DNA of 64,000 nt, from positions 3,844,001 to 3,908,000 of the forward strand of contig NZ_CP087164.1 of NCBI RefSeq assembly GCF_021172045.1, read 5' to 3'. Both the position numbers and the translations under genes were made by a program. A model generated the notes under the pieces. The model worked only from the letters and a program-made list of their open reading frames with translations, was not told where the DNA came from and did not search any database. The first letter of the stretch is position 1; each line of letters opens with the position of its first letter. Source of the stretch: Capillimicrobium parvum. GTDB lineage: Bacteria > Actinomycetota > Thermoleophilia > Solirubrobacterales > Solirubrobacteraceae. Positions 30,700 through 35,787 of this stretch are shown here, piece after piece.

Positions 30700-31839
30700 T
30701 CAGCCCCAGACGCGATCGGCGACCCGGCGCACGAGCTCCAGCTTCGCCCATTGCTCGTCCTCGGTCAACGCGTTGCCGGCGATCTCCGAGGCGAAGCCGC
30801 ACTGCGGGCACAGCGCGAGCTGGTCGAGGTCGACCAGCTGCGCCGCCTCCTCGATGTGGCGCACCAGATCGCCCTCGTCCTCGAGCGCCCCGGTCTTCGT
30901 CGAGACGAGCCCCATCGCCACCGTCGGACCGCCGGCGGGCACGCCCCGCAGCGCGGCGTAGTCGCCCATCCGGCTCGTGTCGTCCCACTCGACGAGGAAC
31001 ACGTCGTAGGGCAGCGAGAAGAACCGGTCGGCGATCGGGTCGAGCTTCGCGTCGACCATCCACATGCCGCGGAAGTTGCCGCGGCACAGGTGCAGGCCGG
31101 TCGTCACGTGATCGGGCACGCCCTGCACGATCATCGCGTCGGCGGCGAAGCTCGCCTCCAGCACGGCGTCGGCGCCCGGTCCGAGCAACGCCCGGAAGCG
31201 ATCGTCGAGCAGCAGTGGATAGGCCGGGTAGTCGAGCTGCACGTAGGTCGCGCCCGCCTCGATCGCCGCGTCGATCTGGCCGCGGAGGATCTGGCCGAGG
31301 TGCATGGCCATCTCCTCGAAGCTCGCGTAGTGGCGGTCGGTGACGCCGGGCTTGAACATCTGCGGCGTCGCGAGCGAGGACGCCGCCGGGAAGGTCACCT
31401 TCACCGGGCGATCGGTGAGCGAAGCGACGAGGCGGGCCTCGTCGGCGCCCGGTGTCGCGATCACCTCGAGGCGCTCGGCGACGACCGGCCGCGCCTCGAT
31501 CTCCACCGCCCCCTCGTCGTTGTGGAAGGTGATCGTGTCGTCGCTCTTGGCCCAGCCGCTCACGGCCTGGTCGAACGAGCCCATGAAGAACGCGCGCCGG
31601 AACTCGCCGTCCGTCACGGCGTCGAGGCCGATCGCCTCCTGGCGGGCGACCGCCTCGCGGATGAAGTCCCCGGTGACCTGGGCGATCGCCGCCTGGTCCG
31701 CCGCCGCGAAGTCGATGCTGAAGTCCGTCGCGTGCGATTCGGACACGTCGATACCGGTCTCCCGCGACAGCGCGTCGATCAGCCGCTGCGGGCGCAGCAG
31801 GCTGCCGACGTGGTCCGCGCGGATCTGGGCCTTGCTCAT
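30700..31839 (-). CDS. MetE-like (cobalamin-independent methionine synthase C-terminal domain) protein
   Basis: 379 residues corresponding to the catalytic barrel of MetE without its N-terminal domain, like core-MetE proteins. The N-terminus has DHVGSLLRP. The zinc site is complete: His and Cys in LHLCRGNF, Glu in FLVEWDD, Cys in LCPQCGFAS. Members transfer methyl groups from methylfolate or methyl-corrinoid proteins to homocysteine or other thiols. It is the last gene of a three-gene operon; its start overlaps the stop of the middle gene by 4 bp (31836-31839). Substrate not known; three relatives in one operon suggest a dedicated methyl-transfer route rather than plain methionine synthesis. 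Confidence 0.82.
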   Translation of the reverse strand: MSKAQIRADHVGSLLRPQRLIDALSRETGIDVSESHATDFSIDFAAADQAAIAQVTGDFIREAVARQEAIGLDAVTDGEFRRAFFMGSFDQAVSGWAKSDDTITFHNDEGAVEIEARPVVAERLEVIATPGADEARLVASLTDRPVKVTFPAASSLATPQMFKPGVTDRHYASFEEMAMHLGQILRGQIDAAIEAGATYVQLDYPAYPLLLDDRFRALLGPGADAVLEASFAADAMIVQGVPDHVTTGLHLCRGNFRGMWMVDAKLDPIADRFFSLPYDVFLVEWDDTSRMGDYAALRGVPAGGPTVAMGLVSTKTGALEDEGDLVRHIEEAAQLVDLDQLALCPQCGFASEIAGNALTEDEQWAKLELVRRVADRVWG

Positions 31840-32909
31840 GTACCGCTCCTCTCGTTCAACACGGCCCGCACCACGTCGCGGTGCTCGCGCATCGTCTCCT
31901 GGCCGTCACGCCCGGGCTGGCGCCCGAACCCGCAGTACATCGCCACGCCGAAGTCGTCGAGGTAGCGCGACGCCGTCGCGTGGCGCCGGCGCAGCCCGGG
32001 GACCCCGTCGATCGGCAGCACGATCCCGAGGAACACGCGCGTGGCGCCGACGTCGAGATCCGCGAGCGGCCGGAAGAACCGCCTGTCCTCGCTGCGCAGG
32101 TACCGCGGGCCGGCCAGGTGCAGCCAGTCGACCGGCCGGCCCGACTCGGCGACGGCGAAGTTCGCCATCCGCACGAGCACGCTCATGTCCTGCGCCTCGT
32201 ACATGGGCCACTCGGGAAACGTGCCGTAGCACAGGTGGTAGCCAACGAGGACGTCCTCCGGAATCAGGCGCGTGAGCCGCGTCACCGGGCCGGCGAAGCG
32301 CTCCCAGCCGCCCTCGGGCGTCCACGCCAGCACCCCCTCGATGTCCTGCGTCTCGTAGGCCAGATCCCACTGGATCGCCAGGTCGGACGGCGGGATCGCC
32401 TCGGCGAGCCGCACCAGCTCCCGCGCGACGAGGTCCTCGAACCCGCGCGCGGCGATCGGGTAGTCGCGCGCGTAGTCCGCCTTGAACGCGTTCATCGCGC
32501 TCGACGGGAACGGCAGCCCGATCTGGAAGCGCAGCCCATCCGCGATCACGCCCTGCTCGCGCAGGTCGCAGAACGTCGCGTACGAGGCGATCGCGTCGTC
32601 GATGCGCGGCCAGCTGTCCCAGTGCAGCGCCTCGACGCCCCCGCGCACCGCGAAGACCGGCGTCTCGTACGCGTGGCGCGGCAGCCCCGTCGGCGACGCC
32701 GTCTCCTCCACGACCTCGACTCCGGGATTGGGGCGCGCAAGACGCTCGCGCTCGTAGCTGACCCAACCGCCGCGCGGGCCGGTCTCGCCGTCGGGCAGCG
32801 CGAACACCAGGTTGCCGAACAGCTCGGAGCCGGCGCGGAACGCCGCCTCGGTCGAATCCACCGGCAGGCTGCCCACCAGCAGCAGGTCACTCGTCACCCG
32901 TGCGGTCAT
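31836..32909 (-). CDS. divergent MetE/UROD-fold protein
   Basis: 357 residues. It begins LLLVGSLPVDSTEAAFR (the GSLP of the MetE fold) and keeps a His-x-Cys (YHLCYGTF) and a late Cys (MYCGFGRQ), but lacks the Glu that completes the zinc site in its neighbours; the corresponding stretch reads VDWLHLAGPRY. The N-terminus also differs. It is thus a paralogue with an altered metal site, perhaps a partner subunit or a substrate-binding homologue. It sits between the two complete relatives: 8 bp after the first, and overlapping the third by 4 bp. ATG 32909. Confidence 0.72.
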   Translation of the reverse strand: MTARVTSDLLLVGSLPVDSTEAAFRAGSELFGNLVFALPDGETGPRGGWVSYERERLARPNPGVEVVEETASPTGLPRHAYETPVFAVRGGVEALHWDSWPRIDDAIASYATFCDLREQGVIADGLRFQIGLPFPSSAMNAFKADYARDYPIAARGFEDLVARELVRLAEAIPPSDLAIQWDLAYETQDIEGVLAWTPEGGWERFAGPVTRLTRLIPEDVLVGYHLCYGTFPEWPMYEAQDMSVLVRMANFAVAESGRPVDWLHLAGPRYLRSEDRRFFRPLADLDVGATRVFLGIVLPIDGVPGLRRRHATASRYLDDFGVAMYCGFGRQPGRDGQETMREHRDVVRAVLNERSGT

Positions 32910-32917
32910 GACCGCAT

Positions 32918-34051
32918 TCAACCCCACACCTCGCGCGCGACCTCGCTGACGAGTCGCAGCTTCGCCTCCTGCGTCTCCGGCGTGAGCCGGCGCTGCTCGG
33001 CCGTCTCGCTCGCCGACGCGAACCCGCACTGCGGCGCGAGCGCGAGCCGCTCGACCGGGTGATACCGCGCCGCGTCCTCGATCCGCGCGACCAGCACGGC
33101 CGGGTCCTCCATCTGCGTCCACTTCGTCGACACCAGCCCGAGGGCCGCGACCTTGTCGTCGGGCAGGTTGGCCAGCGGCTCGAACCCGCCGGAGCGGTCG
33201 TCGTCGTACTCGAGGTGGAACACGTCGTAGCCGGTGGCGCGCCGGAAGACGTGCTCGGAGAAGTCCTCGTAGCCGCCCTCGGCGATCCACGCCTCCGTGC
33301 CGTTGCCACGACACAGGTGCATCGCCTTCTTCACCCCGGGCAGCTCGAGTGCGCCGAACTCGACGGCGAGGTCGGTCCCCAGCGCGATCAGCTCGCGCGA
33401 CGGGATCCCGCGCTCGTCGTACTCGGCGCGCACGCTCGCGTCGCAGTAGACGTCGATGAGGTCGGGCATGTCGAGCTGGATGAACGTGCAGCCCGCCTCG
33501 GCCAGCTCGCCCATCCACCGCTTGATCGCCGCCCCCGCGTCCGCGACCAGCTCCAGCGGGTCCGGGTAGGCGTCCCGGGACACGTCGCCCCAGAGGCCGA
33601 GCATCATGATCGGGCCGGGCAGCGTGACCTTCAGAGGCTTCGACGTCCGCTCGCGCGCGTAGCGGAACTCCTCCACGGCGGGGCACGGCAGCGCGCTGAT
33701 CCTCTCGGCGACCGAGAAGGGGATCTGCACGCTCATCCTGTCCTCGCCCGTGTGGTCGTGGAAGCGCACGGTGTAGGCCGGCTGCATGACGATCCCCGTC
33801 ACGCCCTTGATCAGGAAGTCGAAGAAGATGTCGCGGCGCATCTCCCCGTCGGTGACGACGTCGACGCCGCAATCCTCCTGCAGCCGCAGCGCCGCATCCA
33901 CCGCGCGATCCTCGATCGCCCGGTAGTCCGCCGGGTCGAGCCGGCCGGCGCGCATCTCCGCGCGCGCGGCGACGAGCTCGTCCGGCCGCAACAACGAGCC
34001 GACCACCTCGGCGTGATGAACGGCGGTGAGCGCTTCGGTCTGTCGCTCCAA
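32918..34051 (-). CDS. MetE-like (cobalamin-independent methionine synthase C-terminal domain) protein
   Basis: 377 residues. TTG 34051 is chosen because GGAGGAG lies 6 bases upstream; the frame also opens at 34066, but then the ribosome site would be inside the gene. AEVVGSLLRPDELVAAR opens the fold. The zinc ligands are present (MHLCRGNG, FHLEYDD, LAPQCGFAS). It is about one third identical by eye to the gene at 30700-31839. First gene of the operon and divergent from a TetR repressor, with a palindromic operator between. Methyl-acceptor unknown. Confidence 0.82.
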   Translation of the reverse strand: MERQTEALTAVHHAEVVGSLLRPDELVAARAEMRAGRLDPADYRAIEDRAVDAALRLQEDCGVDVVTDGEMRRDIFFDFLIKGVTGIVMQPAYTVRFHDHTGEDRMSVQIPFSVAERISALPCPAVEEFRYARERTSKPLKVTLPGPIMMLGLWGDVSRDAYPDPLELVADAGAAIKRWMGELAEAGCTFIQLDMPDLIDVYCDASVRAEYDERGIPSRELIALGTDLAVEFGALELPGVKKAMHLCRGNGTEAWIAEGGYEDFSEHVFRRATGYDVFHLEYDDDRSGGFEPLANLPDDKVAALGLVSTKWTQMEDPAVLVARIEDAARYHPVERLALAPQCGFASASETAEQRRLTPETQEAKLRLVSEVAREVWG

Positions 34052-35380: not shown

Positions 35381-35623
35381 GTGGAAGACGACCGCGCCGA
35401 CCCCGACCTGCGCCGCCTCATCGACGCCATCACCGGCCGATCCGACGGCGAGCTGTCCCGGCTCGCGCACCGCCTGACCCACCGTGGATGGCCCGGAGGG
35501 GCCGACCACACGGTGCCGGGCGCGCGCGAATGGGTCAGGCGGTGGGGCCCGGTACGACTGCCGGCCGAGCGCCTCCTCCCGGCCTGCGTGTGCTCGGCCG
35601 GGCGCTGCGGCGTCTGCAACTAG
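35381..35623 (+). CDS. 80-residue protein with a C-terminal Cys cluster
   Basis: GTG start at 35381. The N-terminal half is charged (EDDRADPDLRRLIDAITG). It ends in CVCSAGRCGVCN, four cysteines in a C-x-C-x4-C-x2-C pattern that could bind zinc or iron. The stop codon TAG (35621-35623) belongs to the CTAG that opens the 168-bp hairpin element. Because the same CTAG closes the element, an insertion there would leave the stop intact. No family recognised; coding is supported by G/C-rich third positions only. Confidence 0.45.
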   Translation: MEDDRADPDLRRLIDAITGRSDGELSRLAHRLTHRGWPGGADHTVPGAREWVRRWGPVRLPAERLLPACVCSAGRCGVCN

Positions 35624-35787
35624 TGGTCCGTCTCGTAACCATCGGTCTGAAAGGTGGGTCGTCGGCGCCGCCGGGCAAGGACGCAGACCCGAAGGAATCC
35701 CCCTGGGATTTCGAGTGGTCGAGGACGCCGCATGGCGGTGATCGACGGCCCGCATTTCGGGTCGATGGTTGCGAGATGGGCCACTAG
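35620..35787 (+). other. 168-bp long-stem hairpin bounded by CTAG (structured RNA or MITE-like element)
   Basis: The first 33 bases (CTAGTGGTCCGTCTCG... to 35652) pair with the last 33 (35755-35787) at every position as RNA: 27 Watson-Crick and 6 G-U pairs. Pairing continues inward: 35654-35657 with 35750-35753, 35658-35664 with 35743-35749, and 35667-35672 with 35734-35739. An apical stem GGAATCCC/GGGATTTC (35694-35701, 35705-35712) has a 3-base loop. Every non-Watson-Crick pair is G-U in plus-strand RNA and would be A-C in the other strand. CTAG at both ends could instead be a target-site duplication of a small non-autonomous transposon. Confidence 0.75.

What the first reader, a model, noticed from the sequence alone, without database searches (positions are those of the whole stretch)
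35620..35787. 168-bp long-stem hairpin with strand-specific wobble pairs
The outer 33 positions on each side all pair. In total about 50 pairs form before the apical region, which has its own 8-bp stem. Ten non-Watson-Crick pairs are all G-U in plus-strand RNA and would all be A-C in minus-strand RNA. That bias points to selection on a plus-strand transcript rather than a decaying DNA palindrome. CTAG at both ends also fits a small transposon target duplication.
Basis: seen in the sequence. Interest (0 to 1): 0.8.

Follow-up and report, generated by a model that had tools for sequence, protein, structure and literature searches.

The report
IS630-type mini-transposon with conserved one-strand hairpin
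The 168-base hairpin is one of about 19 full copies of a tiny non-coding jumping element that borrows an IS630-type transposase. Evolution has kept one of its two DNA strands able to fold, and in this chromosome nearly every full copy points the same way relative to DNA replication.

Summary
In detail: 55 pairs precede the internal loops, 11 of them G·U and none A·C. The element is a MITE: 19 full copies in this closed 5.95-Mb genome, relatives in 74 of 146 genomes of the taxonomic family (matched records are Solirubrobacteraceae), and empty sites in congeners. Insertion is at CTAG, with TA on both sides. Intact IS630 elements in relatives have the same ends (29/36 bases within one genome). 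The host genome has no such transposase now.

The strand bias is real and family-wide: 671 G·U against 100 A·C cells in 83 copies, with strong covariation. Changes private to one copy look neutral (7 G·U, 8 A·C), and copies lie in both directions relative to genes. So the fold is kept in the propagating lineage, not as a host transcript at this locus.

Two unexpected findings follow. Full copies are oriented with the replichore (18/19), while 35-bp stubs point the other way (7/8), which suggests that hairpins on the lagging-strand template are deleted. The core hairpin (AAGGACGCAG…GAGGAC) is also shared by elements with unrelated ends but the same length. RNA versus ssDNA is unresolved. New variant of a known kind (IS630-linked MITE).

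The parts
35623..35784 (+). MITE body GTGG...CCAC (162 bp), given on the strand whose single strand folds best (S strand)
   Evidence: copies in own genome, ends compared over 83 copies, empty sites of other copies in congeners
35621..35622 (.). left TA of the CTAG target (inferred TA duplication)
   Evidence: TA on the left in 50/83, on the right in 53/83, both in 35/83 distinct copies; outer bases C and G dominate
35785..35786 (.). right TA of the CTAG target (inferred TA duplication)
35623..35656 (+). left terminal inverted repeat, about 34 bp
   Evidence: equivalent ends in relatives match IS630-family termini up to 29/36 within one genome and 32/36 between genomes
35751..35784 (-). right terminal inverted repeat, about 34 bp
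35657..35676 (+). inner stem, 5' side, including GGCGCCG (35664-35670)
   Evidence: covarying pairs
35731..35750 (+). inner stem, 3' side, including GGCGGTGATC (35734-35743) with two conserved G-U pairs and a bulged A
   Evidence: G-U in 74/83 and 69/83 copies at these two pairs
35677..35686 (+). conserved core motif AAGGACGCAG (5' side of internal loop)
   Evidence: near-invariant in A1; shared with elements that have unrelated ends
35694..35712 (+). apical 8-bp stem and loop
   Evidence: covaries, with changes on both sides in 5 of 6 consensus pairs
35721..35729 (+). conserved core motif GAGGACGCC (3' side of internal loop)
35381..35623 (+). small upstream ORF (80 aa, coding status not tested) whose TAG stop is completed by the first G of the element
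   Evidence: the same boundary arrangement at 43 of 91 element sites

Best explanation
This is a non-autonomous, fully palindromic MITE of the order Solirubrobacterales, moved in trans by an IS630-family transposase that inserts at the TA of CTAG. Shown: dispersed copies, empty sites, IS630 elements in relatives with the same ends, family-wide covariation, pairing kept on one strand only, and orientation of full copies with the replichore in the one genome where this could be tested. Inferred: the lineage that keeps transposing must preserve the fold of one strand (S) because S works as a single strand at some step of propagation, more likely ssDNA at the replication fork than a transcript. 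Copies whose S strand lies on the lagging-strand template fold there and are deleted to about 35-bp stubs, so surviving full copies point one way. Inserted copies then decay neutrally.
For: 19 full copies in the own genome, 78-100% identical to the window copy where DNA search aligns them over their length; 74 of 146 family genomes and 17 of 25 genera. Empty gap|pgk and two other sites in congeners. IS630 transposase (NF033545, E 1e-54) in 1188-1196-bp elements with TIR TAGTGG...CCACTA and C/G flanks; their ends match MITE ends 29/36 in G006 and 32/36 for G120 IS against G050 MITE. A1: 93% of cells paired, 131 cells changed on both sides against 37 shuffled and 22-36 slid. 83 copies: G-U 671, A-C 100, other 247; 82/83 copies have more G-U than A-C. 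Private single changes at Watson-Crick pairs in G000 and G053: 7 keep pairing, 8 A-C, 18 other. dnaA at position 25; full copies 18/19 in one replichore orientation (binomial p 8e-5), stubs 7/8 opposite, Fisher p 7e-5. In other genomes non-adjacent genes are 176:99 antisense to S, as expected if the same polarity holds.
Against: No PF13358 or subgroup transposase in the host genome, so mobilisation there is inferred from relatives. The TA duplication is statistical; only 35/83 copies keep TA on both sides. Replichore polarity rests on one closed genome with 27 informative copies; G060 is mixed (6 of 9 mostly weak hits) and G042 gives one. Most of the stubs share one breakpoint and might be a transposed mini-form rather than repeated deletions. 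Covariation could arise partly from arm-to-arm template switching.
Confidence: 0.72

Rival explanations
1. The plus strand is a functional host RNA (or 3'-UTR element) kept at each locus by selection on its transcript.
For: Very stable fold, covariation and G-U bias. An element sits between the ubiE-like gene and the polyprenyl-synthase-like gene in two genera (L126, L132).
Against: Both orientations to genes, with the stable strand mostly antisense. Private changes in copies are not biased to pairing. Empty sites in congeners. The L126 and L132 elements are strongly diverged from each other, so independent insertion at the same stop codon is possible. No Rfam match.
Confidence: 0.1
2. An ordinary IS630 MITE: a symmetric DNA palindrome whose arms are kept alike by replication template switching; the G-U bias is a frozen ancestral asymmetry between left and right ends.
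For: Long TIRs, IS630 relatives, some private two-sided changes within single copies, wobble at fixed positions such as alignment columns 8, 54 and 57.
Against: Template switching would erase G-U and A-C alike. At pairs whose commonest state is Watson-Crick there are still 404 G-U against 77 A-C (34 pairs against 7). The excess also holds in the inner stem outside the TIRs (285 against 56). Frozen asymmetry does not explain the TIR-independent core.
Confidence: 0.2
3. A REP/REPIN-type element moved by a Y1 (RAYT) single-strand transposase.
For: Hairpin elements with compensatory changes and short singlet remnants resemble REPINs (PMC3116915); the replication-related orientation suggests an ssDNA step.
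Against: Y1_Tnp (PF01797) is absent from G000 and from the copy-rich genomes G006, G008, G052 and G053. Ends match IS630 and lie at TA/CTAG.
Confidence: 0.03
4. Replichore orientation comes from orientation-biased insertion at forks, not from deletion of one orientation.
For: 18/19 full copies share one polarity.
Against: Short forms with the same ends show the opposite polarity (7/8), which biased insertion by the same enzyme would not give.
Confidence: 0.2

Closest known systems
IS630-linked MITEs such as RUP of Streptococcus pneumoniae
   Same: Non-coding, short, TA at the ends, moved by an IS630-type transposase (PMC2229807)
   Different: Here fully palindromic with a covarying core, nearly fixed length of 164-171 bp in most copies across genera, one strand selected, and a core independent of the TIRs
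ERIC and YPAL (RU-1, RU-2) of enterobacteria
   Same: Intergenic, 127 or 168 bp, long RNA-like hairpins with TSD; ERIC has TA termini (PMC2229807, PMC2759123)
   Different: Sequence not compared here; for this element related IS630 elements with the same ends are identified, and the host is an actinobacterial order
REPINs / REP sequences (PMC3116915)
   Same: Mobile hairpin with compensatory changes and short decayed remnants
   Different: No RAYT in copy-rich hosts; ends are IS630-type; the unit is a single 168-bp palindrome at CTAG
Correia/NEMIS elements of Neisseria
   Same: Small repeats with TA termini and transcribed hairpins (PMC2229807)
   Different: Much shorter TIR (24 bp) around a non-palindromic interior as described there; RNase III processing untested here

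Membership tests
MITE (general) | Short, non-coding, many dispersed copies with terminal inverted repeats | tested here: met
   no gene predicted inside
MITE (general) | Empty sites in close relatives | tested here: met
   gap|pgk and two other loci in G001-G003
MITE (general) | Target-site duplication | tested here: inconclusive
   TA on both sides in 35/83, one side often mutated; no same-species empty site
IS630-derived MITE | Ends match an autonomous IS630 element | tested here: met
   29/36 and 32/36; NF033545 transposase; only in relatives, not in the own genome
IS630-derived MITE | Insertion at TA, preferred CTAG | tested here: met
   outer bases C (39/50) and G (40/53); IS630 copies themselves have mostly C...G flanks
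IS630-derived MITE | Transposase acts on the element | not testable with these tools
   needs a transposition assay
REPIN | RAYT (Y1) transposase in the genome | tested here: not met
Rfam RNA families | Match to a covariance model | tested here: not met
ERIC/YPAL | Homologous sequence | not tested
   no reference sequence was compared

The most novel reading that the evidence does not exclude
A structured single-strand module (core AAGGACGCAG...GAGGAC within a hairpin of nearly fixed 168-bp length) is the real heritable unit. It keeps its fold on one strand across an order, exchanges its outer ends to suit different IS630 transposases, and depends on its polarity to the replication fork to survive.
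Probability: 0.3. Interest if true: 0.75.

Novelty: new variant of a known kind. Interest (0 to 1): 0.55.

Why it matters
MITEs are usually treated as pairs of transposase-binding ends. Here comparative evidence shows that the interior and the folding of one strand are also under selection in the mobile lineage, and a closed genome suggests that replication removes copies whose stable hairpin strand lies on the lagging-strand template. That gives a natural genomic test of orientation-dependent palindrome deletion, known to me mainly from engineered palindromes in E. coli, and a tractable case for asking whether bacterial MITEs pass through a single-stranded step.

Tried and rejected
Rfam: nothing. 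Plasmid and phage collections and viral contigs: no match. Y1/RAYT mobilisation: rejected for the copy-rich hosts. Autonomous parent in the own genome: every left-end match in G000 with up to 1 mismatch is a full copy, a short form or a chance match, and no DDE_3 or subgroup transposase was found. The idea that the element seeks stop codons: insertion in stop codons is enriched over TA in general (43/91 against 18%), but not over CTAG, of which 41% of non-genic sites are stop codons (p 0.2), so it follows from CTAG preference. The orientation test in G060 and G042 was too small to decide. Literature searches for the combination of MITE and replication-strand orientation found no bacterial precedent in the held library.

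Full report
Observation. The window copy at 35620-35787 (+) folds to -118.7 kcal/mol as RNA against -80.7 for the other strand, and to -55.5 against -39.2 as DNA. It has 55 pairs before the internal loops, 11 of them G·U and none A·C, and an 8-bp apical stem.

Copies. The window is G000:C1:3844001-3908000 of a single 5.95-Mb contig. DNA search finds 24 places in this genome, 18 of them long (78-100% identity), on both strands. A 168-position covariance model built from 17 diverse copies finds 19 full copies there, and matches in 74 of 146 genomes and 17 of 25 genera of the same taxonomic family. Records with the conserved pattern are mainly Solirubrobacteraceae and Solirubrobacterales MAGs, each with its own amplified subfamily. 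Rfam has no match.

Anatomy. The conserved parts are terminal GTGG...CCAC flanked by TA; a long stem; conserved GGCGCCG opposite GGCGGTGATC with two near-invariant G·U pairs and a bulged A; internal-loop motifs AAGGACGCAG and GAGGACGC; and a variable apical hairpin. Length is 164-171 bp in most copies.

Selection on one strand. On the 17-sequence alignment 93% of cells pair and 131 cells change on both sides, against 37 in shuffles and 22-36 when partners are slid. Over 83 distinct copies the consensus pairs count Watson-Crick 3780, G·U 671, A·C 100, other 247, and 82 of 83 copies have more G·U than A·C. The G·U excess holds in the terminal repeats (348:30), in the inner stem (285:56), and at pairs whose commonest state is Watson-Crick (404:77). 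In contrast, one-sided changes private to single copies give 7 that keep pairing, 8 A·C and 18 other (G000 and G053), which is about what neutral decay gives; the numbers are small. So the fold is kept in the lineage that propagates, not in each inserted copy.

Mobility and parent. Joined flanks of three G000 copies match contiguous DNA in congeners G001-G003, including the gap|pgk junction. The target is CTAG: TA stands on the left in 50/83 and on the right in 53/83 copies, with C and G outside. IS630-family elements of 1188-1196 bp in relatives (G006, G080, G090, G120) have termini TAGTGG...CCACTA with C and G outside. The transposase of the G006 element is NF033545, E 1e-54. Its ends match the G006 MITE at 29 of 36 positions, and the G120 element matches the G050 MITE at 32 of 36. 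G000 itself has no DDE_3 or subgroup transposase, so its copies are orphans now. Y1/RAYT transposases are absent from the copy-rich genomes.

Gene context. 43 of 91 sites complete the stop codon of a neighbouring gene with the element's terminal G, and no predicted gene spans a copy. This follows from CTAG preference, since 41% of non-genic CTAG sites are stop codons.

Replication polarity. dnaA is at position 25 of the G000 contig, and coding-strand bias flips near 2.7-3.0 Mb. Of 19 full copies, 18 have the stable strand on the minus strand in the first half or on the plus strand in the second half (p 8e-5). That places the stable strand on the leading-strand template. Of eight 31-35-bp stubs with the same ends, seven have the opposite orientation (Fisher p 7e-5). 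In other genomes, non-adjacent genes are 176:99 antisense to the stable strand, the same 64% as around G000 full copies. A 246-bp interrupted palindrome in E. coli is known to fold on the lagging-strand template and to be cut by SbcCD (PMC3315005). The simplest reading is that copies inserted the wrong way round are deleted down to stubs; the commonest stub has a 3-base TCG microhomology at its breakpoints (read from the sequences). Biased insertion would not give stubs of opposite polarity. This rests on one closed genome.

A TIR-independent core. In G056, elements L206 and L209 have ends CTAGTAGGGMTTGGCGRAACCC (the first bases CA in L206), unrelated to TAGTGG beyond the first bases, yet the L209 core matches the TAGTGG-type element L201 of the same genome at 54/66, and all three are 168-169 bp. 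G060 has shorter forms with the same core. The core therefore behaves as a module separate from the transposase-binding ends.

Interpretation. The element is a MITE moved by an IS630-family enzyme (about 0.9 likely). That its propagation needs one strand folded is my preferred reading (about 0.6). Replication-fork polarity leans me to ssDNA rather than RNA, but this is inference. Arm-to-arm template switching could make some of the two-sided changes, but it would not favour G·U over A·C.

Verdict. New variant of a known kind.

Noticed in passing
L206, L209 (G056), each at about 1501-1669: Elements with unrelated 21-bp ends (CTAGTAGGGATTGGCGAAACCC in L209) carry the same core hairpin and the same length as the TAGTGG type.
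   Followed up: partly
L126 1501-1667 and L132 1501-1668: In two genera an element lies at the same junction between a ubiE-like methyltransferase gene and a polyprenyl-synthase-like gene (names recalled, not tested), with strongly diverged element sequences: old retention or independent insertion.
   Followed up: partly
L052 1007-1290 and L055 98-2431: Tandem or clustered copies; in L052 a second copy starts at the CTAG that ends the first one (nested insertion).
   Followed up: no
window 30700-34006 (-): Three adjacent predicted genes on one strand encode similar proteins that look like cobalamin-independent methionine synthase paralogues (identity not tested).
   Followed up: no
G136:C1 (L255, L283): About a dozen near-identical copies of another IS630 element with ends TAGTGTYCTGAT, a recent expansion.
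   Followed up: no
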